Of a DNA stretch of 64,000 bases, positions 1,132 to 13,304 are shown piece by piece. Location of the stretch: the IMG/VR virus record IMGVR_UViG_3300020442_000008, positions 62,001-126,000 of that record; one strand, written 5' to 3'. Numbering within the stretch: position 1 is the stretch's first letter; each line of letters opens with the position of its first letter. Position numbers and translations under genes: made by a program. The DNA is from a virus. The notes under the pieces are model-generated. The model did no database searches and was not told the DNA's origin. It worked only from the letters and a program-made list of their open reading frames with translations.

Positions 1132-1160
1132 TTGACTTTCGGGGCAAATTAAAATAGGAT
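1132..1160 (+). promoter_or_regulatory. sigma70-like early promoter
   Basis: TTGACT 1132-1137, 17-nt spacer, TAGGAT 1155-1160; 9 nt to the ATG at 1170, giving a leader of about 3 nt. Confidence 0.65.
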
Positions 1161-1169
1161 ATATATATT

Positions 1170-1580
1170 ATGGGATTAGATCAATACGCTTATAGCAAAG
1201 ATTCAAAAGGAGAAGAGGTAGAACTCGCTTATTGGAGAAAGCACAATCGCCTACAAGGATGGATGGAAGAACTTTGGGAAGCTAAAGGCAGACCAAACTA
1301 CAAACCAACCAATAATGGGGGTCTAGGAGACTTTAATTGCGTGAATCTCTATTTAAGCTTGGAAGACCTTGACGATCTTGAAGAAGTCGTTTGTGCGAAA
1401 GCTTTACCCGAAACTTGCGGATTCTTCTTTGGTGAGGATTCTTTCTCTTGGGAAAATAAAGATGGAGAACAACATAAAGGTTATGATTATTTCTACAAGG
1501 AACTAGATATGGAATTCATAGAAAAAGCTAGAGATGAAATTAATAAAGGAAAAAAAGTATTCTATACTTGTTGGTGGTAA
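1170..1580 (+). CDS. conserved phage hypothetical protein (MGLDQYAY family)
   Basis: 136 residues beginning MGLDQYAY, with LAYWRKHNRLQGWM, a LEDLDDLE acidic stretch, GFFFG and a C-terminal FYTCWW. This architecture recurs as a small conserved protein in many marine phages and is sometimes mislabelled as phosphoglycerate kinase; no enzymatic motif supports that. Function unknown. It has its own near-leaderless promoter. Confidence 0.75.
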   Translation: MGLDQYAYSKDSKGEEVELAYWRKHNRLQGWMEELWEAKGRPNYKPTNNGGLGDFNCVNLYLSLEDLDDLEEVVCAKALPETCGFFFGEDSFSWENKDGEQHKGYDYFYKELDMEFIEKARDEINKGKKVFYTCWW

Positions 1581-1582
1581 AT

Positions 1583-1690
1583 ATGTATTCAATAAATATA
1601 ATAGAATTAATAAATAATATATTTATAGGATTAGGTTTGACGGCACTTTTAATATTTGTTTTATTTTTAGCATTTACTTATGATGACTAA
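1583..1690 (+). CDS. small single-span membrane protein, 35 aa
   Basis: Too short for standard gene calling. The ATG lies 2 nt after the preceding stop with GGTGG upstream. Residues about 12-32 form one hydrophobic segment (IFIGLGLTALLIFVLFLAF) ending in acidic TYDD. It overlaps the next ATG by 11 nt, which supports a translated frame. Function unknown. Confidence 0.5.
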   Translation: MYSINIIELINNIFIGLGLTALLIFVLFLAFTYDD

Positions 1691-1892
1691 AAACAAAGAA
1701 AGAGAATTACTAGATAATATATATAATATAGAGAACGAATTAAAGATAATTGAAAAAGAATTGGATTACATAATCGACAATGCTCCCGAAGATGGGGCAG
1801 TCGCAGAACTCCTAGAGATCGAGCGAGGATACCTTTTGTCGGAACTTGAGATCACCAAGGATTCTTATATGTTACTTACCAAAGATAAATAA
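1680..1892 (+). CDS. hypothetical coiled-coil protein, 70 aa
   Basis: Two adjacent ATGs (1680, 1683) are possible starts. The product is highly charged and predicted helical with heptad-like spacing (IENELKIIEKELDYII). Not recognised. Likely the third gene of the 1170 unit. Confidence 0.6.
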   Translation: MMTKNKERELLDNIYNIENELKIIEKELDYIIDNAPEDGAVAELLEIERGYLLSELEITKDSYMLLTKDK

Positions 1893-2114
1893 CTAAATTC
1901 TATATACAATATATATATAAGACTAATATAACAACAAATAACACACTTATTATATTACTTGATTTATTTTAAGTTAATGAATATTATTAATTTATATATA
2001 AATGCTTGTGAATCAAGGGTATTCAGAGTGGGGGAAAGTGGGGAAAAGTGGTTCAGAGTGGGCTACGCGACTTCAATATATATAAATACTAATACAAATA
2101 TATTCAAATAACAA
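1893..2114. other. AT-rich intergenic stretch with a repeated GAGTGGG motif
   Basis: Mostly AT-rich. At 2023-2065 a G-rich patch contains TTCAGAGTGGG twice and GTGGGG twice, standing out from the surroundings. No gene, terminator or clear hairpin seen. Confidence 0.4.
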
Positions 2115-2294
2115 ATGAAATTAAACAAAATAAACAAAATTCTAAATAATATTAATTTGAAATTGCTTGAAATTAAACTTAAAAATAATTTTAATAGTAA
2201 AAATATATCTAATAATTGCGAAATGAAAATTGATAATGAAAATGATTCAAATATAAAACGAAATAAATACGGATTTCCAACTTTATTCAGATAA
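2115..2294 (+). CDS. possible small lysine/asparagine-rich protein, 59 aa
   Basis: An ATG-initiated frame (MKLNKINKILNNINLKLLEI...) ending KYGFPTLFR. Extreme Lys/Asn/Ile content follows the AT-rich base composition, so it may be chance. The less biased C-terminus and the fit between neighbours favour a real small gene. Not recognised. Confidence 0.35.
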   Translation: MKLNKINKILNNINLKLLEIKLKNNFNSKNISNNCEMKIDNENDSNIKRNKYGFPTLFR

Positions 2295-2360
2295 TACTGC
2301 TCTTTTTAATATATTTTAATTGATTAATATATATTAATTGGCTCGTTCGCAAGTTTTCGG

Positions 2361-2389
2361 TTGACAAAAGGTCGTTTTTCGTCAATACT
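2361..2389 (+). promoter_or_regulatory. sigma70-like early promoter, leaderless
   Basis: TTGACA 2361-2366, 17 nt, AATACT 2384-2389; exactly 6 nt to the ATG at 2396, placing +1 on the A of AUG. Confidence 0.7.
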
Positions 2390-2395
2390 ACTAAC

Positions 2396-2638
2396 ATGAA
2401 CATCAAAGAACGCAGTTTGAAGTATGTAGAATTCCATATGTTCGAGACTTTCGGTCATGTATTCGAGCATCAGCTTCAAACCCAAGGGTATTGGCATCAA
2501 GATGGTAACGATATACGATATGAGAGTGTGGTCGAGAACGCAAAGGGCGAAGAGGGCAACCAAATCAGCTACATCTTCCCCATATTTGACCCCGACAATG
2601 AATTTTATGACAAATATAATAAAGATGAGGATGAATGA
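2396..2638 (+). CDS. hypothetical protein, 80 aa
   Basis: Not recognised. Soluble, aromatic- and histidine-rich N-terminal half (YVEFHMFETFGHVFEHQL) and a very acidic C-terminus. It is the first gene of a leaderless unit and overlaps the next ATG by 4 nt. Confidence 0.65.
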   Translation: MNIKERSLKYVEFHMFETFGHVFEHQLQTQGYWHQDGNDIRYESVVENAKGEEGNQISYIFPIFDPDNEFYDKYNKDEDE

Positions 2639-2844
2639 TGAGTGAATTAACACGAAATATAAATGCTTTGTTAGATGAATATAATAATATTAAACAAAAT
2701 AAATCAAATACAGACGACACTATTGAAAATATAATTAGTGATATAAATAAATTAACTAATAATGGTCGAAATGTTAGTGATATATTTACAAATATATATT
2801 ATATAAACGATAATATGGAAGATAAGCGTTGTGCAGTTAGCTGA
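2635..2844 (+). CDS. hypothetical protein, 69 aa
   Basis: Not recognised. ATGA overlap with the preceding gene (start 2635 or 2638). Asn/Ile/Asp-rich and probably helical. Confidence 0.5.
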   Translation: MMSELTRNINALLDEYNNIKQNKSNTDDTIENIISDINKLTNNGRNVSDIFTNIYYINDNMEDKRCAVS

Positions 2845-3058
2845 AGATCAGATTGCAAGTGAGATTTTGGCAAATAAACACAATGCCACTAATATTGATC
2901 TTTATAAACTAGAAATAATTGATAAAACAATTAATGAAATTATATTGATTTATGAAAATAAAAATATAAATGATTTAATCGAAATTATGAATGGTTTTGA
3001 CCTCAATAAATATAGTAGAAGATTGACTGGAACTGATATGTATTTGTGGGAAACTTAA
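2831..3058 (+). CDS. hypothetical protein, 75 aa
   Basis: Not recognised. GTG start inside the end of the previous frame (14-nt overlap). Predicted helical, ending in a tryptophan-containing tail (TDMYLWET). Confidence 0.5.
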   Translation: MQLAEDQIASEILANKHNATNIDLYKLEIIDKTINEIILIYENKNINDLIEIMNGFDLNKYSRRLTGTDMYLWET

Positions 3059-3197
3059 TATTGCATTATATATCAAGCAATAAACGAAATTAAGATTGAA
3101 TTTGAGCCAAATAAGATTATATCTCACCTTTATGCCTTATATATCAAGCAGTTATGTCGATAAAATGAAAAAAAATCGACATTTCAAAAAAAAAGTG
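3059..3197. repeat. intergenic stretch with a direct repeat
   Basis: TTATATATCAAGCA occurs at about 3066 and again at about 3138, 72 nt apart. No gene seen. Could be a protein-binding site pair. Confidence 0.4.
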
Positions 3198-3226
3198 TTG
3201 ACAAGGGCGACATATTTTGCGATACT
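3198..3226 (+). promoter_or_regulatory. sigma70-like early promoter, leaderless
   Basis: TTGACA 3198-3203, 17 nt, GATACT 3221-3226; 6 nt to the ATG at 3233. Confidence 0.7.
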
Positions 3227-3232
3227 TAAACC

Positions 3233-3478
3233 ATGACAACGATTAAAAGCACTCTTGAAACGCTCCGCAAGCAACGCAACCTTGCGGATGAGGTATCTAA
3301 CTTAGGTTCATACATGAGCGGAAACACATCCGAGCTTGTACAACACATAGGTTTTCTAGGAGATAAGATAGAAGACCAAGCACAAATGACTAATGGTTAT
3401 TTAGATGATATAAGATCATCAATAGATAAGAATACAGAAGCTTTACAAAGAATTGCAGATATAATTGCAAGAAGATAA
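3233..3478 (+). CDS. hypothetical helical protein, 81 aa
   Basis: Not recognised. Predicted as two long helices; the C-terminal half (LDDIRSSIDKNTEALQRIADIIA) has the heptad pattern of a coiled coil. Leaderless start. Confidence 0.65.
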   Translation: MTTIKSTLETLRKQRNLADEVSNLGSYMSGNTSELVQHIGFLGDKIEDQAQMTNGYLDDIRSSIDKNTEALQRIADIIARR

Positions 3479-3504
3479 ATAATAACACTAATATAAATAT
3501 AATT

Positions 3505-3705
3505 ATGAGTATTGCGAAAAACGCTAGAGCATCACAGATTATGTCGAATGTCAGCAACGGACATTATGTAAAGAACGGAAAGTTTGCGAATTTCGGGTCT
3601 ATTCCCGAAGATAGCATCTACTACCACACTTGGTTGGCAGAGAAGGCAGATCGTAAACGCAAAGAGCGAGAAGCTCAAGCCCTTGCGAAAGGAGTTCGGG
3701 CATGA
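3505..3705 (+). CDS. hypothetical basic protein, 66 aa
   Basis: Not recognised. Arg/Lys-rich C-terminus (KADRKRKEREAQALAKG). The stop overlaps the next ATG (ATGA), indicating coupling. Confidence 0.6.
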   Translation: MSIAKNARASQIMSNVSNGHYVKNGKFANFGSIPEDSIYYHTWLAEKADRKRKEREAQALAKGVRA

Positions 3706-3878
3706 TTGACGCTTTTGATAAACAATCAGTTAATATATGTAAAAAGATTCGGGGTATACTTGAAGCAGAACTCGATCTTAATATAAAGGATCATGGATTA
3801 TGGAGGATACAATGCTTAATACATGATGAACTGAAAGAAAATAAAGAAATTCAAAAAAAGGTATTGACAAATAACTAA
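3702..3878 (+). CDS. hypothetical protein, 58 aa
   Basis: Short frame starting at the ATGA junction with the preceding gene: MIDAFDKQSVNICKKIRGIL..., ending QKKVLTNN. Its last codons run through the -35 box of the downstream promoter. Not recognised. Confidence 0.5.
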   Translation: MIDAFDKQSVNICKKIRGILEAELDLNIKDHGLWRIQCLIHDELKENKEIQKKVLTNN

Positions 3879-3892
3879 ATATATAGTATTAT
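3864..3892 (+). promoter_or_regulatory. sigma70-like promoter of the noncoding RNA
   Basis: TTGACA 3864-3869, 17 nt, TATTAT 3887-3892. No start codon follows at the usual 6 nt; the next 400 bases are noncoding, so this promoter appears to drive an RNA gene. Confidence 0.65.
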
Positions 3893-3898
3893 TAATAC

Positions 3899-4300
3899 AT
3901 AACAATTGAGAAAGAAACTCAATCAAATAAAATATAATTGATCTTTAACATTTTTTTAACACTTTGGAAGGGCTTATAATCCTTCCTGTGGGTGACTGAA
4001 TAAGCCTGTCGTGAGCGGGCTAAAGTACGCAGACTTCCTGTGGTGGGAGTGCAGAGTCCAATCGGATGAGCAAAAGATGTAGACCTTGTCTAGTCTGTGG
4101 TTTGAAGTAGGTACACCATTGAACTGATGTTCACGCCGAAAAAATGGAGGTATTCAGTAGTCCTCCCCCACATCTATTTACATAGGCAAATATGCGGAGG
4201 TTGTGTGTTGCCTCTAGTGACTATCATCGCCTGTTGGGTAACTCAATAAAAGCCTAGCAAACTCTAAAAACCCTCATCTTTCGAGATGGGGGTTTTTTTT
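3899..4300 (+). ncRNA. candidate structured noncoding RNA, about 400 nt
   Basis: Bounded by a promoter (3864-3892) and an intrinsic terminator (4269-4300), with no open frame of note and clearly higher G+C than its surroundings. Visible helices: GGAAGG 3966-3971 with CCTTCC 3981-3986; AGCCTG with CGGGCT (4003-4021); ACTTCC with GGGAGT (about 4033-4050); GGAGG with CCTCC (4146-4166); GAGG with CCTC around 4197-4214; and a long-range AGATGT (4075-4080) to ACATCT (4169-4174). The tmRNA peptide tag, the RNase P signature and group I core elements were looked for and not seen. Function unknown. Confidence 0.65.
4269..4300 (+). terminator. rho-independent terminator
   Basis: AACCCTCATCT / AGATGGGGGTT stem with a TTCG loop followed by eight T. 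Ends the candidate noncoding RNA. Confidence 0.85.
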
Positions 4301-4302
4301 GT

Positions 4303-4331
4303 TTGACAAGATCCACCACCTAGTCTACTAT
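4303..4331 (+). promoter_or_regulatory. sigma70-like early promoter, leaderless
   Basis: TTGACA 4303-4308, 17 nt, TACTAT 4326-4331; 6 nt to the ATG at 4338. It follows the terminator by only a few bases. Confidence 0.7.
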
Positions 4332-4337
4332 GGTAGC

Positions 4338-4595
4338 ATGATTACATTAAAAAACATACTATCACACTACGGGTACATCAACTCAGATCAACTCGCAGAA
4401 CTTAACGAACACTTCCCTCACATGAAGGTGGTAATTAAATGGGGTGGACTTCCTCGTGAACGAGTCCCTGTTTGGAAGGCAATAGAAACCATCGAGAGAG
4501 TCGAGAGGGAGAACATTGACTATTGCAGAGAGGTATTTCTCTCGGCAACCGATTGCGAGAATCTTCGCAAAGCTTTACATATAGCCACTAATTAA
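4338..4595 (+). CDS. hypothetical protein, 85 aa
   Basis: Not recognised. The start at 4338 (MITLKNIL) was chosen over the in-frame ATG-like start at 4299 because the promoter's -10 ends 6 nt before it. The fold looks alpha/beta with an IERVERENIDY helix. Confidence 0.65.
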   Translation: MITLKNILSHYGYINSDQLAELNEHFPHMKVVIKWGGLPRERVPVWKAIETIERVERENIDYCREVFLSATDCENLRKALHIATN

Positions 4596-4603
4596 CATAT
4601 ATT

Positions 4604-4849
4604 ATGAAGTATCAAGCAGAACGAAATGCAGTTGAGTTTGGTTTATTGGATATTGAAGATAGAATACATGACAATGACCATAGACTAGACTTCGCTCAAA
4701 AACAAGAGATTCAAGGTAGAACAGACTTAATCAGATTACTATTGAAAAGAAATCTACCATTGAAAGCTAAACAACAATTAAAATTCTTAGATAGATATAT
4801 TGATCAATGCTTATATAATGATTATATGATACATGATTATTTATCTTGA
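4604..4849 (+). CDS. hypothetical helical protein, 81 aa
   Basis: Not recognised. Predicted all-helical, basic in the middle (LLLKRNLPLKAKQQLKFLDR). Its TGA stop is embedded in the next promoter's -35 (TTGACC). Confidence 0.6.
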   Translation: MKYQAERNAVEFGLLDIEDRIHDNDHRLDFAQKQEIQGRTDLIRLLLKRNLPLKAKQQLKFLDRYIDQCLYNDYMIHDYLS

Positions 4850-4874
4850 CCTTTATTCTAAACTTAACTAGTAT
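4846..4874 (+). promoter_or_regulatory. sigma70-like early promoter, leaderless
   Basis: TTGACC 4846-4851, 17 nt, TAGTAT 4869-4874; 6 nt to the ATG at 4881. Confidence 0.7.
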
Positions 4875-4880
4875 TATACT

Positions 4881-5462
4881 ATGATAAATCCACTAGAAGT
4901 AACTAACTACAATCGTTCTCAATCCGAACTACAGGAGTTCCTGTTGTTTTGCATCAATGTCGCAGGTAAGAAATCTGCTGTCGAAGCACCCAAGCTAGAA
5001 GTATTCCTGCAGAGGGTAAGAGACCTCACGAAGTCGGACTCACCATTTGAAGGACTCAGGATACTCCAGAAAGAAGGGAACCTGCAGTCCATCATGCATT
5101 GGGCAGCAATCAGTCCATACAGGCAGCGTTACAACAGTTACCAAGATGTTCTATCCCTAGGCAACCTGCGTTCAGTAACACTTCCAAGACTCATGAAGGT
5201 TCGAGGCGTTGGGCTTAAAACTGCACGATTCTTCCTTTCGCATTCTCGTGAAGACTTCGACGAACCAATGCTGGACACACACATTCTACAGTTCCTGAGA
5301 GACCAAGGATATCGTAACGCCCCGAAGAGCACCCCACAAAACGAAGGTATTTATAATTATTACGCAAATGTCTTCAAGATGTTTGCTCGGACACTTGGTC
5401 AATCTGTAACCGACTTAGACTTGACCATCTGGAAACAGTACTCACAAACCACAAACAACTAA
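4881..5462 (+). CDS. HhH-GPD DNA glycosylase/lyase-like protein
   Basis: 193 residues. The helix-hairpin-helix loop RGVGLKTARFFL (about residues 105-118) followed by LDTHILQFL, with the Asp at about residue 132, matches the HhH-GPD base-excision superfamily (EndoIII, Ogg, AGOG), where a conserved Asp after the hairpin is catalytic. The usual catalytic Lys of bifunctional enzymes falls in the hairpin (LKTA), which would fit an Ogg/AGOG-type lyase. There is no 4Fe-4S Cys cluster. Probably acts on damaged or modified phage DNA; substrate unknown. Confidence 0.7.
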   Translation: MINPLEVTNYNRSQSELQEFLLFCINVAGKKSAVEAPKLEVFLQRVRDLTKSDSPFEGLRILQKEGNLQSIMHWAAISPYRQRYNSYQDVLSLGNLRSVTLPRLMKVRGVGLKTARFFLSHSREDFDEPMLDTHILQFLRDQGYRNAPKSTPQNEGIYNYYANVFKMFARTLGQSVTDLDLTIWKQYSQTTNN

Positions 5463-5746
5463 ATTGGAACTATTAATTATACTGGTAACAGGTATACTTA
5501 TGGGAATAAAATTAGCAATAGAAAGTTGGAAAGATTAATTGCTTAGATATATGAACTAATGAAATTCGAAATAAGTGAATCGCAAATATGAAAATATTAA
5601 ATAACAAGTCAATATATTTTAATCAGAGGGCGCCGCCCATCATACTGACTATCAAGGACTTATGAAATTTCGCCAAGTCAAAAACTTGCGTAAGTCTCCG
5701 GCAATCAAAGACTTACAACAAAAGTAATTAAAAAGCAAAAAAGGTG
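5463..5746. other. intergenic stretch holding palindromic repeat copy 1
   Basis: Contains a GGGCGCCGCCC palindrome near 5629 and repeat copy 1 (5648-5716). Two tiny frames (25 and 21 codons) overlap the repeat and are not convincing genes. Confidence 0.5.
5648..5716. repeat. dispersed palindromic element, copy 1
   Basis: Begins ACTATCAAGGACTT, contains GCGTAAGTC and ends ATCAAAGACTTAC; the GTAAGTC/GACTTAC arms pair. This copy lacks the GCCGGC core of most others but shares the outer arms. Confidence 0.55.
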
Positions 5747-5775
5747 TTGACAGGACGACATTCTTTCTCTAGTAT
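5747..5775 (+). promoter_or_regulatory. sigma70-like early promoter
   Basis: TTGACA 5747-5752, 17 nt, TAGTAT 5770-5775; 7 nt to the ATG at 5783. Confidence 0.7.
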
Positions 5776-5782
5776 AGTATAC

Positions 5783-6151
5783 ATGATGAAAAACGATATG
5801 CCTATAAACGAATTATTAAACTTCGATGATCTTGTTTTCAAGCCACATCGCCATGCCGACGGAGTTCAAGCTGTGCTTGACTTGGGAAACGATCTTTCGA
5901 TCTCTGTCGTTGCAAACAATGACGGAGGGCAAGGGTTATATGGTCAAGTCAGTGATGGTCTGTACGAAGTTGCAGTCTTTTACAAGAATGATATGATTCC
6001 TCTCTCTCCTGCAGATGATGTTGTGGGTTGGCAATCTCCTAACCAAATCTCTTATATGATGATGAAGGCTCAAGTAGAAGGGTTTTATTGGGTTGATGAG
6101 CTTAAGGATGCAAAAAGAGAGTATAGAAGAGAATTCGAGCTTGACAATTAA
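5783..6151 (+). CDS. hypothetical protein, 122 aa
   Basis: Not recognised. The start 5783 (MMKNDMPINELL) is fixed by the promoter; an upstream in-frame GTG lies inside the -35 region and is rejected. A beta-rich middle (LDLGNDLSISVVANNDGGQGLYG) and a charged helical C-terminus are visible. The pattern resembles small phage proteins of unknown function. Confidence 0.65.
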   Translation: MMKNDMPINELLNFDDLVFKPHRHADGVQAVLDLGNDLSISVVANNDGGQGLYGQVSDGLYEVAVFYKNDMIPLSPADDVVGWQSPNQISYMMMKAQVEGFYWVDELKDAKREYRREFELDN

Positions 6152-6169
6152 TTACCATTAGTATAGGAT
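6141..6169 (+). promoter_or_regulatory. sigma70-like early promoter, leaderless
   Basis: TTGACA 6141-6146 lies inside the end of the preceding gene; 17 nt; TAGGAT 6164-6169; 6 nt to the ATG at 6176. Confidence 0.65.
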
Positions 6170-6175
6170 GATATT

Positions 6176-6400
6176 ATGACAGACGCAGAATTAGTAATGC
6201 AAATCGTTAAAGGAAATCTTGCTTGGCAAGATCCAATGTCTAAGGTTTGCCTCGATCAACATGAGCGACATCCCGAAAAGTTCCCTTTGGGTAGTACCTT
6301 TCAGTCATTCGATGAAGTTTTAGACGACATCATTTTTGACTTGACATCTTTACGAGATGAGCGTAGAATAGAATCATCTTTTCAATCAGCACAACTATAA
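6176..6400 (+). CDS. hypothetical protein, 74 aa
   Basis: Not recognised. Soluble, acidic, probably helical. Leaderless, first gene of a three-gene unit. Confidence 0.6.
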   Translation: MTDAELVMQIVKGNLAWQDPMSKVCLDQHERHPEKFPLGSTFQSFDEVLDDIIFDLTSLRDERRIESSFQSAQL

Positions 6401-6411
6401 CCAAAGAAATT

Positions 6412-6636
6412 ATGTTAACAGATAAAAACCAAATCGCAGAGTTTAGACTCCGCACTCTTCACAAAATGCTAAAGCTTGAAATTCTTGGGATGAAACGCAG
6501 AGGTCAATCGGCTTATGCAATCATAAAGCAAGAAACGGGTCTCACGGGATCAAAGCAAAAAGTTTACGACAAACTAGATGCTTTTCTGAATCCTCAACAT
6601 GATGTAGAAATGGAAAGGGCAATCTACAATGGGTAA
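6412..6636 (+). CDS. hypothetical basic helical protein, 74 aa
   Basis: Not recognised. AQSAYAIIKQETGLTG-like segment (residues about 34-48) could be a helix-turn-helix, which would fit a small regulator, but evidence is weak. AAAG precedes the ATG. It overlaps the next ATG by 8 nt. Confidence 0.6.
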   Translation: MLTDKNQIAEFRLRTLHKMLKLEILGMKRRGQSAYAIIKQETGLTGSKQKVYDKLDAFLNPQHDVEMERAIYNG

Positions 6637-6808
6637 GAAGAATAAAGAAAAAGGCATTCCTAGCCAAGAAGCTCATTTGCACTTGCATAAAGTGGCAAAG
6701 AAATCCTCTCACACGGGCAACAAACCTCTTGTTCCACACATTAACAATCCTAATGTTATGGTTACTCAAAAGGTGAGAAAAGCCCAAGAATCGAAAAAAA
6801 ACTCTTGA
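6629..6808 (+). CDS. hypothetical basic protein, 59 aa
   Basis: MGKKNKEKGIPSQEAHLHLH..., Lys/His-rich, ending ESKKNS. The segment HLHLHKVAKKSS is plausible for nucleic-acid binding. The TGA lies inside the following promoter's -35 box (TTGACT). Not recognised. Confidence 0.55.
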   Translation: MGKKNKEKGIPSQEAHLHLHKVAKKSSHTGNKPLVPHINNPNVMVTQKVRKAQESKKNS

Positions 6809-6833
6809 CTTTTAACCCATAATTTGAGATACT
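6805..6833 (+). promoter_or_regulatory. sigma70-like early promoter, leaderless
   Basis: TTGACT 6805-6810, 17 nt, GATACT 6828-6833; 6 nt to the ATG at 6840. Confidence 0.7.
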
Positions 6834-6839
6834 TATATC

Positions 6840-7109
6840 ATGTTAGATTATATTGAAGCAAACTGCGTTTTACCGCCACTTGAAAACAAACCATCCTACA
6901 ACGAAGAATCGGGCTTATGGGAACTATACTTTGAGGAGCTTTTACCATCATGGTATGTTAGAGGTGAAGACGAACACCCCGACCTTATCACTCTCAATTT
7001 CGAGACTTGGGATCAAGTCCAAAACACTTTACTACAACTAGAACAAATCAAACATGAAAGGGACGCTTATGAAGCTACTGAGCAAGATCAAGAATCTGTT
7101 CTCTCCTAA
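6840..7109 (+). CDS. hypothetical acidic protein, 89 aa
   Basis: Not recognised. Trp-rich acidic N-terminal half (SGLWELYFEELLPSWYV) followed by a helical tail. Leaderless start. Confidence 0.65.
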   Translation: MLDYIEANCVLPPLENKPSYNEESGLWELYFEELLPSWYVRGEDEHPDLITLNFETWDQVQNTLLQLEQIKHERDAYEATEQDQESVLS

Positions 7110-7299
7110 GTACCAAGTGGTATATACCACTCAAGACGGACGGACTGAACGCTATACAATCAACAAACCATCATATGAGTATGAGTTTGGCAACAATCAC
7201 GAAGGAAAGAAAGTCGTTGGCTTTCGCTCCTACTGCCACAATCGGCATGGTGTACGCTCTTTTCGTTACGATAGAGTTGTCGCACTAGAAAGGGCATAA
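7069..7299 (+). CDS. hypothetical basic protein, 76 aa
   Basis: Not recognised. The ATG at 7069 has GAAAGGGA 5-6 nt upstream and is preferred to the ATG at 7054. It overlaps the previous gene by 41 nt. The fold looks beta-rich (YQVVYTTQDGRTERYTI) and basic. Confidence 0.6.
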   Translation: MKLLSKIKNLFSPKYQVVYTTQDGRTERYTINKPSYEYEFGNNHEGKKVVGFRSYCHNRHGVRSFRYDRVVALERA

Positions 7300-7302
7300 T
7301 CC

Positions 7303-7461
7303 ATGAATATAATTGCCTTAAAGAAACAGATTCGCCAACTCGGCTACGAGCTAATGCTTGCAGAAGTTAGCGATTCTTATTGCGAAGACTTCGTAGAGAA
7401 AAGGAAGCTCCACGACTCCTTGCTAGAGCAACTCTACAAGGCGGAAAAAAGAGTTTTCTGA
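7303..7461 (+). CDS. hypothetical helical protein, 52 aa
   Basis: Too short for standard calling. MNIIALKKQIRQLGYELMLA..., entirely helical and charged. It follows the previous stop by 3 nt and precedes a terminator, so it closes the 6840 operon. Confidence 0.55.
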   Translation: MNIIALKKQIRQLGYELMLAEVSDSYCEDFVEKRKLHDSLLEQLYKAEKRVF

Positions 7462-7484
7462 TCTTTACCCTCCTAAACCATTAT

Positions 7485-7509
7485 CCCCCAAGCACTTGGG
7501 GGATTTTTG
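7485..7509 (+). terminator. rho-independent terminator
   Basis: CCCCCAAG / CTTGGGGG stem with a short loop followed by ATTTTT. Confidence 0.8.
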
Positions 7510-7510
7510 G

Positions 7511-7542
7511 CATAGGCCGGCCGGCCCGTAAGTCCTTGGTAT
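7511..7542. repeat. dispersed palindromic element, copy 2 (partial)
   Basis: Only the GC core (GGCCGGCCGGCCCG) and right arm (TAAGTCCTTGGTAT) are present, directly behind the terminator. Confidence 0.55.
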
Positions 7543-7625
7543 AGAGTGAGTTAAGCAACAAAAAAAATGTGTTTATTAGTCATTTTATGCTTGCAGTTTG
7601 CACCGATTCTGTCATACTTATAGTT

Positions 7626-7859
7626 ATGATAATTAATGAAGAATACCAATCGGATGAAAACCCTAACGCTGAACTCGTTGTCGAGGCAATCATGGATCAG
7701 ATCGCAACTATCCTTATTCAACCTATGCACGACAAACTTACCGCTGAAGATCAACTGACCCTTGGTCTTGTGGCAAATGCCCTAAAAGTATTGGGCAAGA
7801 AAGCTCAAGCATATGAAAACTTGGAAAACGGAGAACTTCCCCAAGATTGGAAAAATTAG
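7626..7859 (+). CDS. hypothetical acidic helical protein, 77 aa
   Basis: Not recognised. Start 7626 (MIINEEYQSDENP) is preferred to 7569 because ATACTT lies 6 nt before it, with TTGCAG 17 nt further upstream (7591-7596). Helical (AELVVEAIMDQIATILIQPM). Ends just before the DUF932-like gene's promoter. Confidence 0.65.
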   Translation: MIINEEYQSDENPNAELVVEAIMDQIATILIQPMHDKLTAEDQLTLGLVANALKVLGKKAQAYENLENGELPQDWKN

Positions 7860-7862
7860 TGC

Positions 7863-7891
7863 TTGACTTTTTATATATTTTCACTTATACT
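7863..7891 (+). promoter_or_regulatory. sigma70-like early promoter with a real leader
   Basis: TTGACT 7863-7868, 17 nt, TATACT 7886-7891. Unlike its neighbours it leaves about 32 nt of 5' leader before the ATG at 7930. Confidence 0.75.
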
Positions 7892-7929
7892 TATATCATA
7901 ACAATCGAAAATCCTAAACTTAAAAAATT

Positions 7930-8727
7930 ATGTTAGATACAACTCAAGAAACTCCTCGTCTTAACCTTCGCATTTGCGGTAACAGATCAACAATCGTTGA
8001 CATGGATGCCGTTCGTAGAGTACCAACTCCACAAGCAACGAATCGTTGGAAACCTATTGCACACTCAAAAGTTGTCGATACAACTCGAAACACTCTTGAG
8101 GATAAAGGTTTTGAAATTCTCAACGAATGTCACAATGTCACCAAAGGTGGCGAGCATTACTTTGGAATGTTCCAAGTTAATCATGCTGACCTTTCCGATA
8201 ATGGCGGTGAGCGTGGTTGCGTTGTGGGCATGAGAAATTCCCATGACAAACTTTTCGCAGCAGGTCTGTGTGCAGGTGACGCACCATTCATCTGTGACAA
8301 TCTTATTTTTCACAACGAAGTTGTCTTCACTCGCAAACATGTTGGCGATGTTTATGGAGAACTCGTAACAAGGGTGAACAAAATCACCGAGTATCTTATT
8401 CCTATGTGGACTCGTCAAAATGATCGTGTGCAAGCCTACAAAGACCTTGCGGTCAATGATCGTGAAGCTCAGCATCTCATTTTCGATGTTTACGAAGCAG
8501 GAATTAAGACTAATTTGATTGGCAAGTCTATGCTCGCTCAAGCGTGGGAGCAATGGAAAGATTCTGACCACAAGGTTTTCCAAGACCGCAATCTCAATTC
8601 ATTGTACAATGCTTTCACAGAAGTGAGCAAAGGACGCAATGTTATGCACTTGCCCAAACGCTCTGAAATTTTCCACAACGCTTTTGATCCTGTCGCAGGG
8701 GTTGAAGCAGTCGAACTTGTCGCTTAA
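7930..8727 (+). CDS. DUF932-like phage/plasmid protein
   Basis: 265 residues. The central region (RGCVVGMRNSHDKLFAAGLC, then GDAPFICDNLIFHNEVVFTRKH at about residues 95-140) resembles the DUF932 family found in phages and plasmids, where function is unknown although a DNA-metabolism role is often assumed. Well expressed to judge from its perfect -10 and 32-nt leader, which is unusual in this region. Family assignment by pattern only. Confidence 0.6.
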   Translation: MLDTTQETPRLNLRICGNRSTIVDMDAVRRVPTPQATNRWKPIAHSKVVDTTRNTLEDKGFEILNECHNVTKGGEHYFGMFQVNHADLSDNGGERGCVVGMRNSHDKLFAAGLCAGDAPFICDNLIFHNEVVFTRKHVGDVYGELVTRVNKITEYLIPMWTRQNDRVQAYKDLAVNDREAQHLIFDVYEAGIKTNLIGKSMLAQAWEQWKDSDHKVFQDRNLNSLYNAFTEVSKGRNVMHLPKRSEIFHNAFDPVAGVEAVELVA

Positions 8728-8756
8728 TTTTAACACTAAAACAAAGGATATACATT

Positions 8757-8984
8757 ATGAAATGCCGTAATCTCAACGAAGTACTCGATTCACGCAAAGG
8801 ACGATTTGTTTCCGTCCTTCTAAAGAATGGTCTGAAGCGTGAGCTTTATTCAGCTAAAGTTCACGACTACAATTCTAAAGTCGTCCGTTTCCGTGACACT
8901 AATGGAGGCGAGCGTAGAGTTGACCGCTCTATGGTTGTAAGGGCTAAGGTTGCCGAGCGTTATTTCAAACGCTCAAGGAGTTAA
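8757..8984 (+). CDS. hypothetical basic beta-rich protein, 75 aa
   Basis: Not recognised. AAAGGA 8 nt before the ATG. GRFVSVLLKNGLKRELYSAKV and VVRFRDTNGGERRV look like a small SH3/OB-like beta barrel with many Arg/Lys, consistent with nucleic-acid binding. Followed by a terminator; operon partner of the DUF932-like gene. Confidence 0.65.
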   Translation: MKCRNLNEVLDSRKGRFVSVLLKNGLKRELYSAKVHDYNSKVVRFRDTNGGERRVDRSMVVRAKVAERYFKRSRS

Positions 8985-9004
8985 CCAAAGCTCTCCTTCA
9001 AAAA

Positions 9005-9032
9005 ACCCTTGGGAAACCAAGGGTTTTTTTTG
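9005..9032 (+). terminator. rho-independent terminator
   Basis: AACCCTTGG / CCAAGGGTT stem, GAAA loop, run of eight T. Confidence 0.85.
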
Positions 9033-9048
9033 TGCCCTAAGTTATTTA

Positions 9049-9110
9049 CTATCAAGGACTTCCAGGCTTGCCGGCCCAGGCAAAACTTGGCGTAAGTCTT
9101 TGATTATCAG
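9049..9110. repeat. dispersed palindromic element, copy 3
   Basis: Left arm ACTATCAAGGACTT, core TTGCCGGCCCAGGCAA, right arm GTAAGTCTTTGATTATC. The arms are imperfect inverted repeats and the core can form a hairpin. Confidence 0.65.
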
Positions 9111-9137
9111 GTGTTTGAAGCTTAAGAAAAAAAAGTG

Positions 9138-9167
9138 TTGACAGGTGCCTAGTTATAGTGTTATAGT
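9138..9167 (+). promoter_or_regulatory. sigma70-like early promoter, leaderless
   Basis: TTGACA 9138-9143, 18 nt, TATAGT 9162-9167; 6 nt to the ATG at 9174. Confidence 0.7.
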
Positions 9168-9173
9168 ATAGGT

Positions 9174-9575
9174 ATGATTAGAACAAAGACAGACTCTCGC
9201 TACGACATCGACTATGACCGTAAGGTGTTCGTATATAAAAACCTTCACAAGAATTGCTGGAGCATCCGCCAGGACGGGTTAGTCAAAGCTCATTCAGATG
9301 GTTCACCAATTTGCTTATATTCAGCAGTCATGAAAGTTAACCAAAAAGGTCGAGAGCGTGTGATTCGAGAAAAGAGTAAAAATGTTCATGCAGGTATTTT
9401 GGGTTACCTTAGATTTCCTATGATGGAAGTATGGCACGGATGGGTTGACATGATCGAGATTACATATAACCCTTACAAGTATCATTCTTTTGTAGATGTT
9501 GAAAACAAGAAGACAAGATACTTCGCAAGCTTCTGTAAACTTTATCAAGATAAAGTTTTAGTTGATCGTTATTAA
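9174..9575 (+). CDS. hypothetical protein, 133 aa
   Basis: Not recognised. Basic, with SRYDIDYDRKVFVYKNLHKN at the N-terminus and CWSIRQDG, resembling conserved small phage proteins. Leaderless. Confidence 0.65.
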   Translation: MIRTKTDSRYDIDYDRKVFVYKNLHKNCWSIRQDGLVKAHSDGSPICLYSAVMKVNQKGRERVIREKSKNVHAGILGYLRFPMMEVWHGWVDMIEITYNPYKYHSFVDVENKKTRYFASFCKLYQDKVLVDRY

Positions 9576-9578
9576 GGG

Positions 9579-9607
9579 TTGACAAGTTAATTTATTTTTA
9601 TTAGTAT
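9579..9607 (+). promoter_or_regulatory. sigma70-like early promoter, leaderless
   Basis: TTGACA 9579-9584, 17 nt, TAGTAT 9602-9607; 6 nt to the ATG at 9614. Confidence 0.7.
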
Positions 9608-9613
9608 AGTATC

Positions 9614-10354
9614 ATGATTAAAACAACACTTCTCACATCAGGTAATCAAAAAATTCTCAAAGGAGAAAAAATGGGTTACATCACGAAAGGCATCCACCTT
9701 GCCCCTGCCAATCTTGCGGGCTATGAAGTTTGCCAATGGCGTTCCAAAGGATGCACTGCTTCTTGTCTCAACACGGCTGGTCGTGGGCAAATGAACTCTG
9801 TTCAGCAGTCACGCATTGCCAAGACAAAGCTATTCTTCGAGCAACGCAAAGATTTCATGATTAAGCTTTGCAAAGAAATTGCTTCGACCATTAAGTCGGC
9901 AAGCAAGAAAGAGATGAAAGCAGTTTTCCGTCTCAATCTCACAAGTGACATTAAATGGGAGGATGTTTACATGAAAGATCCAAACTATAACATTTTTGAA
10001 TACTTTTGTGCAGAACAATTCTACGACTACACAAAGTCATTTAAGAGAATGTGTGCTTATCTTGGCAAGCCATTCACCAAAGATGAAGCAAAGTTTCCGT
10101 CCAATTATCATCTAACTTTTTCTCGTTCAGAACACAACGATAAGAAGTGTGAAATGGTTCTTGCTATGGGTGGCAATGTTGCCGTGGTGTTTCGCAATCA
10201 ATTACCAAAGACTTGGAAAGGTTACGAAGTTGTTAATGGTGATGAAACTGATTTGCGTTTCCTTGACAAAAAAGGTGTTGTCGTTGGGCTTATCGAAAAA
10301 GGTATGGCAAAGAAAGATGAGACAGGATTCGTGCAAGAAGGTATTGACTCTTAA
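9614..10354 (+). CDS. GP88-like cysteine-motif phage protein
   Basis: 246 residues. The motif CQWRSKGCTASCLNTAGRGQ (about residues 41-60), followed by QQSRIAKTKLFFEQRKDFM, matches the GP88 family first seen in mycobacteriophages: three closely spaced Cys, then C-L-x-x-A-GRG and a basic helix. Function of the family is unknown; the Cys cluster could bind a metal or iron-sulfur centre. The family is widespread in phages of unrelated hosts. Confidence 0.65.
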   Translation: MIKTTLLTSGNQKILKGEKMGYITKGIHLAPANLAGYEVCQWRSKGCTASCLNTAGRGQMNSVQQSRIAKTKLFFEQRKDFMIKLCKEIASTIKSASKKEMKAVFRLNLTSDIKWEDVYMKDPNYNIFEYFCAEQFYDYTKSFKRMCAYLGKPFTKDEAKFPSNYHLTFSRSEHNDKKCEMVLAMGGNVAVVFRNQLPKTWKGYEVVNGDETDLRFLDKKGVVVGLIEKGMAKKDETGFVQEGIDS

Positions 10355-10371
10355 TTGCAATTTGATATAAT
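10344..10371 (+). promoter_or_regulatory. sigma70-like early promoter, leaderless
   Basis: TTGACT 10344-10349 inside the end of the preceding gene, 16 nt, consensus TATAAT 10366-10371; 6 nt to the ATG at 10378. Confidence 0.75.
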
Positions 10372-10377
10372 TATAGT

Positions 10378-10587
10378 ATGAGAAAAACAAAATTCATATT
10401 GACTTTATCAAACGACAAAATTCCAATCATTGCAGAAGTTTGTGCTTTAAGAGTTTTAGAGAATGATGAAAAAGTATTAGGCAAAGCTTGCGTGGAAGCA
10501 AACATTAAGTCAAAAAACTTCATAGACATAACAAGAAAAGCCAACTATAAAGAAGGAAAGTTATATGCTCATGCGGATTATGTATAA
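10378..10587 (+). CDS. hypothetical protein, 69 aa
   Basis: Not recognised. Mixed alpha/beta, basic C-terminus. Last gene of the rightward early block before the convergent junction. Confidence 0.6.
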   Translation: MRKTKFILTLSNDKIPIIAEVCALRVLENDEKVLGKACVEANIKSKNFIDITRKANYKEGKLYAHADYV

Positions 10588-10660
10588 GCGAAAAACCGCC
10601 ACGCAAATAGAAGAATGACAAATAGATAAATAGCAAATAGTATATATTTACCAATAAAAA

Positions 10661-10703
10661 ATTCCATAACCTTTTCATTATCAATGACTTATGGGATTTT
10701 TTT
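10661..10703 (+). terminator. terminator at the convergent junction
   Basis: ATTCCATAA (10661-10669) pairs with TTATGGGAT (10689-10697), followed by a T run. It overlaps palindromic repeat copy 4. Confidence 0.6.
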
Positions 10704-10747
10704 GCTAGGCCAGGGTTTGCGTAAGTCTCCGACAATCAAGGACTTAC
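10676..10747. repeat. dispersed palindromic element, copy 4
   Basis: Left arm ATTATCAATGACTTA, core TAGGCCAGGGTTTGCG, right arm TAAGTCTCCGACAATCAAGG. Lies between the two converging gene blocks. Confidence 0.6.
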
Positions 10748-10748
10748 A

Positions 10749-10916
10749 TCACGAGAAAAAAGGATGCTTGACCACTGAAGACATCGGGACACAAACCCGC
10801 CTCTGTGAGCGGTAGACCCTCGCAAGGACGAAGGTCTCGGCTCCGTCTTTGTAAGTGCCCTCGACATGGAGGATTCGCTTTTTATAGTCTACCACGACAT
10901 CATTTTTTTTAATCAT
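10749..10916 (-). CDS. hypothetical basic beta-rich protein, 55 aa
   Basis: Too short for standard calling. MIKKNDVVVDYKKRILHVEG... with VLARVYRSQRRVCVPM looks like a small beta barrel. It is the last gene of the 11236 unit, 14 nt after the preceding stop. Its higher G+C than its surroundings also suggests coding. Confidence 0.6.
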   Translation of the reverse strand: MIKKNDVVVDYKKRILHVEGTYKDGAETFVLARVYRSQRRVCVPMSSVVKHPFFS

Positions 10917-10930
10917 AATTTTATCCTATT

Positions 10931-11011
10931 CTATCGGCTCAACTCGCCTTTGATCAATTCTTTTATTAATGCGAACAATCCCACAACACCTAGCAATGTG
11001 ACCAATTCCAT
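10931..11011 (-). CDS. tiny hydrophobic peptide, 26 aa
   Basis: MELVTLLGVVGLFALIKELI followed by KGELSR: one short membrane-type segment with a basic tail. It begins 3 nt after the stop of the 11015-11236 gene. Small, so only moderately supported. Confidence 0.45.
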   Translation of the reverse strand: MELVTLLGVVGLFALIKELIKGELSR

Positions 11012-11014
11012 TAT

Positions 11015-11236
11015 TTATTTGTCTGAAGGAACAAAGTCAAGCTCACGATTGTCAAGGATGTATCCTATGACTTTATTGACCTTTTCGATTGTATCGTCGA
11101 GGGTCTTTTTGGAATGTTCTGTGGCTTTCATTTCTTCAAGCACGGAACGCAAGAACTTGAGATTTCCGTTTGCGGAAGCAAGCTTCATTGCGGTATTGTC
11201 GAGGAGTTTTTCGTCTTTGAGTGTTTCGATAATCAT
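11015..11236 (-). CDS. hypothetical helical protein, 73 aa
   Basis: Not recognised. Helical and charged (LEEMKATEHSKKTLDDTIEK). First gene of a leaderless leftward unit with two smaller genes behind it. Confidence 0.65.
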   Translation of the reverse strand: MIIETLKDEKLLDNTAMKLASANGNLKFLRSVLEEMKATEHSKKTLDDTIEKVNKVIGYILDNRELDFVPSDK

Positions 11237-11242
11237 AAGTCT

Positions 11243-11270
11243 ATTCTAAGGATTTAAGGTTAAAAGTCAA
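11243..11270 (-). promoter_or_regulatory. sigma70-like early promoter, leaderless
   Basis: On the - strand: TTGACT at 11265-11270, 16 nt, TAGAAT at 11243-11248; 6 nt to the ATG at 11236. Confidence 0.7.
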
Positions 11271-11280
11271 GCTTTTTTTT

Positions 11281-11466
11281 TCACTCCCACTCGGAGTGAT
11301 GACCGAAGTCGATGTCCTCGACCTCTTGGAAGTCAAGGAGGGAAATCCTGTCTTGCAGGTCTCCGATTTCGTTGCGGTACGCAACGAGGTCAGCGGAGGT
11401 GAGGACGGAATCCGCGATGATTTCGCGGAGGAGAGAAATTTTGTTGAGCATTTCGGATTTTGTCAT
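11281..11466 (-). CDS. hypothetical coiled-coil protein, 61 aa
   Basis: Not recognised. Helical (MLNKISLLREIIADSVL...), acidic C-terminus. It has a leader of about 30 nt rather than a leaderless start. Confidence 0.6.
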   Translation of the reverse strand: MTKSEMLNKISLLREIIADSVLTSADLVAYRNEIGDLQDRISLLDFQEVEDIDFGHHSEWE

Positions 11467-11503
11467 AATTTTTTGTGTTAGGTTTTCTTTATTTTATATT
11501 TAC

Positions 11504-11532
11504 AATGTATCAGAGTTTTGCGGAAAAGTCAA
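11504..11532 (-). promoter_or_regulatory. sigma70-like early promoter
   Basis: TTGACT at 11527-11532, 17 nt, TACATT at 11504-11509; leader of about 30 nt to the ATG at 11466. Confidence 0.6.
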
Positions 11533-11624
11533 GAACTTTTTTTACTTTTTTTCAATTTTGGAATTACGAATTTGCAGAGGATTTTTTCTCTTTCTGTGAG
11601 TTGGGCTTTTTCAATCTTAATCAT
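11529..11624 (-). CDS. small basic peptide, 31 aa
   Basis: MIKIEKAQLTEREKILCKFV..., ending KKSKKSS. The start is exactly 6 nt from a good -10, and its TGA is part of the next promoter's -35 (TTGACT at 11527-11532). Not recognised. Confidence 0.5.
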   Translation of the reverse strand: MIKIEKAQLTEREKILCKFVIPKLKKSKKSS

Positions 11625-11630
11625 ACCTAT

Positions 11631-11659
11631 AATGTAGCACAAAAACCCCGAAAAGTCAA
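11631..11659 (-). promoter_or_regulatory. sigma70-like early promoter, leaderless
   Basis: TTGACT at 11654-11659, 17 nt, TACATT at 11631-11636; 6 nt to the ATG at 11624. Confidence 0.65.
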
Positions 11660-11710
11660 GAAAAATCTTTAACTATTTTTTTGCACAATTCTCCTAGCGT
11701 AAGTTGTTCT

Positions 11711-11768
11711 TTACCAAAGACTTCCGGCATAGCCGGCAGGGGCGACCGGCGCCCTAAGTCTTTGATGG
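11711..11768. repeat. dispersed palindromic element, copy 5
   Basis: Left arm TTACCAAAGACTT, core AGCCGGCAGGGGCGACCGGC, right arm CCTAAGTCTTTGATGG. It lies directly 3' of the 11777-12085 gene on the - strand. The core is nearly identical to copies 7 and 8. Confidence 0.7.
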
Positions 11769-11776
11769 TGTGTGAC

Positions 11777-12085
11777 TTAGAACACGAGAGATTCAAGATT
11801 CTGATTTTGAACGGCAAACCAATCGGATGGGTTAATGATGTGACCGTTTAGTACAGGCTCAAAGTTGACCTGATGAACTCCGGCATTGACTATTCCGTTC
11901 ACTCGCTCACGAGTGGTTGGAGTGTTCCAGCCAGCCAGAGACCATATCACAAACCCGCTTGCATCACGCTTGATTATAGCGTTGCCATGCAACCAAACGG
12001 TGTTGCCGTCAGTGCGAGTGTTGCCAACTGTCAAAGGTTGGCGAGATTCAAAAGCTTGTTTTATTTGTTGTGTTACTTTTCTCAT
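11777..12085 (-). CDS. conserved phage hypothetical protein, 102 aa
   Basis: NTRTDGNTVWLHGNAI followed by LAGWNTPTTRERVNG (residues about 22-65) is a pattern that recurs in small proteins of many phages; function unknown. Probably an alpha/beta fold with conserved N, T and GW positions. Confidence 0.7.
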   Translation of the reverse strand: MRKVTQQIKQAFESRQPLTVGNTRTDGNTVWLHGNAIIKRDASGFVIWSLAGWNTPTTRERVNGIVNAGVHQVNFEPVLNGHIINPSDWFAVQNQNLESLVF

Positions 12086-12094
12086 TGTTATATA

Positions 12095-12280
12095 TTAAGA
12101 TTTTTTTTCGGGTTTTGCAAGTAAAAAGTTCAAGAAAGTTTCTTGAGCCTTTTGGTTGTCCAGGAGTTCGTCAAGTTCAATTTGTGCATTTATTACCATC
12201 TGCTGGCTTTGAATGTGTCCTGCTTCTGCGATAGGGTTGAAAACCCTGATGAGTTCTTTGAGTTCTTTGATTCTATCCAT
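12095..12280 (-). CDS. hypothetical helical protein, 61 aa
   Basis: Not recognised. Helical, acidic (IELDELLDNQKAQETFLNFL). It overlaps the preceding 52-aa gene by 8 nt. Confidence 0.6.
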   Translation of the reverse strand: MDRIKELKELIRVFNPIAEAGHIQSQQMVINAQIELDELLDNQKAQETFLNFLLAKPEKKS

Positions 12281-12431
12281 GGCTTGAGAGAATTGGGGCT
12301 TGGGTTTTGACTTGTAACTGCTTTGCTTTTTTCATGGCTTTTGCGTGAGTCTTTGCGTTGTCTACGATTTTCCCAAAAAGTCGGATATCGAACCAATTTG
12401 AGAAGTTTGGGTTTTTGTCAACATTTATCAT
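12273..12431 (-). CDS. small basic protein, 52 aa, paralogue of 15066-15239
   Basis: MINVDKNPNFSNWFDIRLFG, then KIVDNAKTHAKAMKKAKQLQ. It matches the 57-aa protein encoded at 15066-15239 (NFSEWFNV..., VDNARTHAQAM), so the two are paralogues, which supports both as real. A longer frame at 12193-12396 in another phase was rejected in favour of this one. Confidence 0.65.
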   Translation of the reverse strand: MINVDKNPNFSNWFDIRLFGKIVDNAKTHAKAMKKAKQLQVKTQAPILSSHG

Positions 12432-12439
12432 AAGCTTTT

Positions 12440-12468
12440 ATACTATATCTTAAGGTTTAAAAAGTCAA
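12440..12468 (-). promoter_or_regulatory. sigma70-like early promoter
   Basis: TTGACT at 12463-12468, 17 nt, TAGTAT at 12440-12445; 8 nt to the ATG at 12431. Confidence 0.65.
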
Positions 12469-12471
12469 GCT

Positions 12472-12744
12472 TTATCTCCAACTTTTTAGAGAAAAATTTG
12501 TCTGATGTGCCGAGACGGGCAAACCTTGCGTTGGCAAGTCTTTTGCGAAGTCATCAAAAAAGGCAACCGCTTCCGATAGCTCGTCAGCGTGGATTTGCTC
12601 CTCAAGCTTTTTCAACTCGTCCTGTGCATGGCTGAGATGCAACGCCCGAATGGAACGCAAGGATTCCTTGCGAGAGCGGTTGAGTTTGTCTTGCCAAAAG
12701 GCAATTTCCTTTTGGAGCTTTTCTATCTTTTCAATTTTATTCAT
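12472..12744 (-). CDS. hypothetical coiled-coil protein, 90 aa
   Basis: MNKIEKIEKLQKEIAFWQDK and a second helix rich in Glu form a coiled coil. The start at 12744 (6 nt from the -10) is preferred to an in-frame TTG at 12762. Not recognised. Confidence 0.65.
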   Translation of the reverse strand: MNKIEKIEKLQKEIAFWQDKLNRSRKESLRSIRALHLSHAQDELKKLEEQIHADELSEAVAFFDDFAKDLPTQGLPVSAHQTNFSLKSWR

Positions 12745-12750
12745 GCCTAC

Positions 12751-12779
12751 AATATATCTCAAAAAGGTTGGGAAGTCAA
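12751..12779 (-). promoter_or_regulatory. sigma70-like early promoter, leaderless
   Basis: TTGACT at 12774-12779, 17 nt, TATATT at 12751-12756; 6 nt to the ATG at 12744. Confidence 0.7.
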
Positions 12780-12967
12780 GCTTTTTTTACATTATTTTTC
12801 ATCGCAATCTTGTTTTGCAAATCCCATTCGTCGAGCCAAGCTTGGTTTTTTGCCAAAGCATCCTTGGCAATTTCAACCACGACAGGGTCGCTATCGTGGG
12901 CAATGGTCTCCCGAAGGAATACCATATCGGCTTTGACTTTAGAGATGAGTCTTATTGAATTAAACAT
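12776..12967 (-). CDS. hypothetical helical protein, 63 aa
   Basis: Not recognised. Helical; NQAWLDEWDLQNKIAMKNN near the C-terminus. Leaderless. Its stop region abuts the next gene's -35. Confidence 0.6.
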   Translation of the reverse strand: MFNSIRLISKVKADMVFLRETIAHDSDPVVVEIAKDALAKNQAWLDEWDLQNKIAMKNNVKKA

Positions 12968-12973
12968 ACCTAT

Positions 12974-13002: not shown

Positions 13003-13040
13003 GCCTAAAATTAAACTATTTTTTTGCACGATTCTGCTGT

Positions 13041-13302: not shown

Positions 13303-13304
13303 TT

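What the first reader, a model, noticed from the sequence alone, without database searches (positions are those of the whole stretch)
3864..4300. Possible undescribed phage noncoding RNA of about 400 nt
A clean promoter, about 400 bases without coding frame, relatively GC-rich sequence with several compact helices plus a long-range pairing (AGATGT with ACATCT), and a strong terminator. The same promoter class that elsewhere puts an ATG at +7 here lacks any start codon, so the RNA itself looks like the product. It does not show signatures of tmRNA, RNase P, 6S or group I introns that I could recognise. The size is near that of other large structured RNAs of phages (GOLLD/ROOL class), but no specific match is claimed.
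Basis: partly seen in the sequence, partly recalled or inferred. Interest (0 to 1): 0.8.

Follow-up and report, generated by a model that had tools for sequence, protein, structure and literature searches.

The report
Stand-alone manA RNA of marine phages
The stretch is a real noncoding RNA gene, but of a class already named (manA, known so far as a control element at the start of phage messages); in this little-known group of marine phages it appears to be made as a separate RNA with its own promoter, an rRNA-like leader and its own stop signal.

Summary
The RNA unit is real, but the family is known. Window 3966-4176(+) matches Rfam manA RNA (RF01745) over the full model: 84.4 bits, cut-off 55.2.

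Rfam and Weinberg 2010 file manA as a cis-regulatory 5'UTR element. I collected 31 non-redundant manA loci of this phage's clade (uncultured, not T4-like). There the RNA is a self-contained transcription unit: a sigma70 promoter of at least 11/12 in 24/31, an intrinsic terminator (mostly 5-30 nt after manA) in 27/31, and in 26/31 a separate promoter with a leaderless ATG for the next gene. The structure is kept: 95% of cells paired, 23 pairs with double changes.

Nearly all members share a leader absent from cyanophage manA loci: a 5' hairpin (pseudoknot in about 12) and GWTCTTTWANA, close to the rRNA antitermination signal boxA (GYTCTTTAANA): 29/31 against 1/79.

In cyanophage-type loci manA precedes gp32, talC, thyX and hsp20 genes; the two groups separate cleanly in a tree. 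My reading: a trans-acting structured RNA made with Nus-factor help; target unknown.

The parts
3864..3892 (+). sigma70-type promoter of the RNA (TTGACA-17-TATTAT); transcription start inferred near 3899
   Evidence: 11-12/12 promoters at the equivalent place in 24 of 31 clade members, shuffled 0.4
3906..3922 (+). 5' leader hairpin TTGAG-AAAGAAA-CTCAA (in other members its loop pairs downstream as an H-type pseudoknot)
   Evidence: 28 of 31 members; compensatory variants TTAAG/CTTAA, TCGAG/CTCGA, CTGAG/CTCAG
3940..3950 (+). boxA-like element GATCTTTAACA
   Evidence: G[ACT]TCTTT[AT]A.A upstream of manA in 29/31 members vs 0.3 shuffled and 1/79 cyanophage-type loci; other matches in the window lie inside protein genes
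3966..4176 (+). manA RNA core (RF01745), closed by long-range helix 3987-3992/4167-4172
   Evidence: 84.4 bits, E 4.9e-20, model 1-192; covariation in 31 sequences
4183..4259 (+). accessory 3' structured module between manA and terminator, present in only three members
   Evidence: shared with L162 and L273; alignment
4266..4300 (+). intrinsic terminator (14-bp stem, loop TTCG, T tract)
   Evidence: terminators in 27/31 members; 4177-4304 folds with z -4.3
4303..4595 (+). independently promoted leaderless next gene (TTGACA-17-TACTAT, ATG 4338, 85 aa, no family match); not part of the RNA

Best explanation
The window carries a stand-alone gene for a manA-family structured RNA of about 400 nt (near 3899 to near 4301). 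Host RNA polymerase would transcribe it from a near-consensus sigma70 promoter and an intrinsic terminator would end it before the next gene. [Architecture shown by sequence and conservation; actual transcription inferred.] The leader carries a 5' hairpin or pseudoknot and a boxA-like element, which probably loads NusB/NusE(S10) and other Nus factors on the polymerase so that this untranslated RNA is made fully and folds properly, as for rRNA and CRISPR arrays. [Element shown; Nus loading inferred.] The finished RNA most likely acts in trans as a folded RNA that binds a host or phage factor; in cyanophages the same domain seems to be used in cis in 5'UTRs. [Trans action and target inferred; target unknown.]
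For: Rfam manA hit. Of 27 related or pattern-found records, 19 hold manA over the cut-off; 31 non-redundant clade members in all. Promoter >=11/12 in 24/31, boxA in 29/31, terminator in 27/31, all far above shuffles. Separate promoter with leaderless ATG for the next gene in 26/31. The next gene is not constant: 20 share one family, the others are unrelated. No conserved ORF. Structure kept: 95.1% of cells paired, 141 double-changed cells vs 36 in shuffles. The clade is one branch, support 0.99, apart from cyanophage manA. boxA agrees with the published gamma-proteobacterial consensus GYTCTTTAANA (PMC5725501) and with boxA use on CRISPR arrays (PMC7862264).
Against: No expression data. Promoters and terminators are consensus matches. 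The trans target is unknown. Outlying members L157, L158 and L161 lack part of the unit, and in L157/L161 the next ORF starts shortly after manA without its own promoter. 16S leaders examined in the two MAG-linked groups do not show the same boxA and the host is unknown.
Confidence: 0.62

Rival explanations
1. A cis-acting riboswitch or attenuator: manA senses a ligand and the terminator is its expression platform for the next gene.
For: manA is filed as cis-regulatory (PMC2864571); 20 members have the same family of next gene; some cyanophage loci have a terminator only a few nt before the ATG.
Against: The next gene has its own promoter after the terminator in 26/31; the next gene changes while the unit stays; in the window and L162 a 77-nt module separates manA from the terminator; in the alignment the terminator stem lies outside manA.
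Confidence: 0.15
2. A Nus-factor decoy: an abundant boxA RNA that takes NusB/S10 away from rRNA synthesis of the host.
For: Strong promoter and conserved boxA; overexpressed lambda NutL RNA titrates Nus factors and lowers rRNA expression (stated in PMC4807359).
Against: It does not explain the conservation of the manA fold; one boxA per transcript.
Confidence: 0.08
3. The boxA-like string is not a Nus site but another conserved single-stranded signal of a stand-alone manA RNA, for example the binding site of an unknown phage protein.
For: Position 2 is A in most members, outside the published Y; the downstream TTTT is also conserved; no matching host rRNA boxA was found.
Against: The fixed positions coincide with those of boxA and the variable ones (2, 8, 10) include both degenerate positions of the consensus; GTTCTTTAATA in 5 members and GTTCTTTAAAA in L279 match it exactly; the hairpin-then-boxA order is that of rRNA leaders (PMC10250234).
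Confidence: 0.3

Closest known systems
manA RNA motif (RF01745), Weinberg et al. 2010
   Same: Full-length match over the cut-off, same helices, invariant closing helix, found in marine phages.
   Different: Known as a 5'UTR element; here it has its own promoter, a leader with hairpin and boxA, and a terminator. Lower scores (64-89 bits; cyanophage-type loci checked 166-192 bits); a separate branch.
rRNA (rrn) antitermination leader (boxB-boxA-boxC)
   Same: Hairpin followed by a boxA-like element between promoter and a long untranslated RNA.
   Different: No boxC looked for or seen; no rRNA; pseudoknot in some members; Nus binding untested.
boxA-led CRISPR array leaders (reported by Stringer et al., as cited in PMC7862264)
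   Same: boxA upstream of a noncoding transcript, one member (L279) with the identical 11-mer GTTCTTTAAAA.
   Different: A phage structured RNA, not an array; function not tested.
GOLLD / ROOL and other large structured phage RNAs
   Same: Stand-alone structured noncoding RNA in phage genomes.
   Different: No Rfam match to them; those RNAs are larger (own knowledge).

Membership tests
manA RNA (RF01745) | Score above the curated gathering cut-off over the whole covariance model | tested here: met
   84.4 bits vs 55.2, model 1-192
manA RNA (RF01745) | Consensus helices including the long-range closing helix, supported by covariation | tested here: met
   49 pairs, 95.1% paired, 23 pairs with double changes; 0/500 shuffles as high
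manA RNA (RF01745) | Cis-regulatory position in the 5'UTR of an mRNA (Rfam type, not part of the sequence model) | tested here: not met
   terminator and a second promoter lie between manA and the next gene
boxA / Nus antitermination site | Match to GYTCTTTAANA in an untranslated leader | tested here: inconclusive
   window GATCTTTAACA has one mismatch (position 2); 6 of 28 members match exactly
boxA / Nus antitermination site | Binding of NusB/NusE and effect on transcription | not testable with these tools
   needs experiment
Riboswitch | Ligand binding and control of a downstream gene | not testable with these tools
   no ligand known; gene context argues against it here
tmRNA, RNase P, 6S, group I intron, GOLLD, ROOL | Match to the Rfam model | tested here: not met
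   only manA above cut-off in the window; no tRNA or tmRNA

The most novel reading that the evidence does not exclude
manA is not at root a riboswitch but a trans-acting phage RNA. In one phage lineage it is a dedicated, Nus-factor-assisted noncoding RNA gene that borrows an rRNA-type antitermination leader to make itself, and the 5'UTR copies in cyanophages are another use of the same factor-binding fold.
Probability: 0.3. Interest if true: 0.75.

Novelty: new variant of a known kind. Interest (0 to 1): 0.52.

Why it matters
manA has been an orphan riboswitch candidate since 2010, filed as a 5'UTR element. A whole phage lineage that appears to make it as a separate RNA, tied to no one gene, gives a direct handle on what the fold does by itself and suggests that its 'cis-reg' label is at least incomplete. 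The rRNA-like leader would be a new example of phages using Nus factors for a noncoding RNA, and it can be tested in a laboratory strain with a small plasmid.

Tried and rejected
Undescribed RNA class: rejected by the Rfam hit. Coding sequence: rejected; longest internal ORFs are 16-44 aa, mostly with GTG/TTG starts, not shared. BLAST against cultured phages: only AT-rich promoter-like matches in Streptococcus, Listeria, Enterococcus and Staphylococcus phages, judged chance, and no match with a relative's manA; the first 25 kb of the window have no near relative there. Host search: the one bacterial-genome scan gave two true clade manA loci, in a Neomarinimicrobiota MAG (L279) and a Rickettsiales MAG (L273), probably binned phage contigs; apart from one GTTCTTTGAAA, the 16S leaders examined from the L279 genome and from the family of the L273 genome lack the phage boxA. 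The 3' module as a separate widespread RNA: only three examples. Weak Rfam hits to rnk_pseudo, SpF11 and BTnc231 at the 3' end are terminator look-alikes below cut-off.

Full report
What is there. The window is part of a 128,598-base virus record, positions 62001-126000. cmscan finds one RNA family in the whole window: manA RNA, RF01745, at 3966-4176(+), 84.4 bits against a cut-off of 55.2, covering model positions 1-192. Rfam and those papers treat it as cis-regulatory, in potential 5'UTRs.

The anatomy of the window unit. Promoter TTGACA-17-TATTAT 3864-3892; inferred start near 3899; hairpin TTGAG-AAAGAAA-CTCAA 3906-3922; GATCTTTAACA 3940-3950; manA 3966-4176; an extra 3' module 4183-4259; terminator 4266-4297 with T tract. 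It is followed at once by another promoter, 4303-4331, with ATG at 4338.

Relatives. The first 25 kb of the window have no near relative among 50,697 phage records. The DNA polymerase is DnaE-like, and terminase and helicase are only distantly like known ones, so I take the phage as not T4-like. A protein 3' of the RNA (4881-5462) found 19 related loci in IMG/VR. When the records behind these and behind a short pattern scan, 27 in all, were searched with RF01745, 19 were over the cut-off. A clade-specific DNA pattern and a bacterial-genome scan raised the set to 40 loci, 31 non-redundant at 97%. In a midpoint-rooted tree with 87 loci found by a cyanophage-type pattern these 31 form one branch, support 0.99. 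Members checked directly score 73.6-86.6 bits, cyanophage-type loci 166-192.

The unit is conserved. Within 240 bases upstream, 24/31 have a promoter of at least 11/12 (shuffled 0.4) and 29/31 have G[ACT]TCTTT[AT]A.A (shuffled 0.3). 27/31 have an intrinsic terminator within 150 bases after manA (2 in shuffles), mostly 5-30 nt after it. In 26/31 a promoter follows that puts an ATG 5-7 nt after its -10 box. Next genes: 20 share one small family, the others are unrelated. The same measures on 79 cyanophage-type loci: promoter 33, boxA 1, terminator 15. There the next gene on the same strand is often gp32, transaldolase, ThyX, HSP20, a phosphomannomutase-like protein or DUF6561, at about 11 to several hundred nt. 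That is the cis-type arrangement of the literature, with a functionally mixed gene set.

Structure. On the 31-sequence alignment, 49 pairs give 95.1% paired cells, 23 pairs with a change on both sides and a covariation score of 0.352 against 0.177 in shuffles (0/500 as high); slid structures reach 50% paired at most. The structure was derived partly from this alignment, so the slid control leans in its favour. The long-range helix TGTGGG/CCCACA is almost invariant. The leader hairpin has compensatory variants. In about 12 members the loop can pair with a segment before boxA (GGGC/GCCC, GGAT/ATCC, GGGT/ACCC, GAGGC/GCCTC, GGGGC/GCCCC, AAGCT/AGCTT), an H-type pseudoknot with an A-rich linker; in the window (loop AAAGAAA) no such pairing was found.

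The boxA reading. Across 28 leaders the element reads G[A/T]TCTTT[A/T]A[C/T/A]A with all other positions fixed. The gamma-proteobacterial boxA consensus is GYTCTTTAANA (PMC5725501); a CRISPR-array boxA of L. pneumophila Lens is GTTCTTTAAAA (PMC7862264), identical to the element of L279. In rRNA operons the order is boxB, boxA, boxC (PMC10250234). Outside the unit the window's few matches to this string lie inside protein genes. I take this as a probable, not proven, Nus site. The host could not be identified, and 16S leaders examined in the two MAG-linked groups did not show the same boxA.

Mechanism. Shown: a conserved unit with its own promoter, structured non-coding body and terminator, decoupled from the next gene. 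Inferred: host polymerase makes it; Nus factors on boxA help it to be made in full and to fold; it is released as a separate RNA and acts in trans on an unknown factor. The cis-attenuator reading is the main rival. It is disfavoured by the second promoter and the changing next genes, but it may hold for some cyanophage loci where a terminator lies only a few nt before the start codon.

Limits. No expression data; relatives are metagenomic; the two sets were collected with different DNA patterns; L045 and L104 in the cyanophage-type set are probably pattern matches only; R-scape was not available.

Noticed in passing
window 1132-16287, both strands, and 59367(-): About 20 sites of TTGAC-type promoter with ATG directly after the -10 box: many early genes seem to have leaderless mRNAs with their own promoters.
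   Followed up: partly
window 4183-4259; L162; L273: A 77-nt 3' module (AGGCAAATATGCGGAGGT.GTGTGTTGCC...) found in only three members, with apparent compensatory changes in its last hairpin.
   Followed up: partly
L162, L220, L235 between boxA and manA: Nearly identical 60-nt insert (TTTTGAGCATAGATCTCGCAAGC...CTCAATT) in otherwise different loci, as if a module moves between phages.
   Followed up: no
L015, L054, L062, L066, L068, L085, L114 just after manA: In cyanophage-type loci a recurrent hairpin AGACCTAAGATGCAACTC...GGTCT followed by T's sits 4-11 nt after manA; no Rfam family reached its cut-off there in the five loci searched.
   Followed up: partly
L065, L105, L109: Terminator-like hairpin with T tract directly before the start codon, downstream of manA: looks like attenuation.
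   Followed up: no
window 21392-32935: An 11.5-kb ORF of 3847 aa, next to terminase and structural genes.
   Followed up: no
window 48714-51191: An 825-aa ORF on the minus strand matching the phage ATP-dependent protease family phrog_4871 over nearly its full length.
   Followed up: no
window 4881-5462: Glycosylase-like (Ogg-HhH, weak) protein whose nearest annotated relatives, 37-38% identity, are mostly in Caulobacter phages, with Erythrobacter and Sinorhizobium phages also matching; a weak hint of an alphaproteobacterial host.
   Followed up: partly
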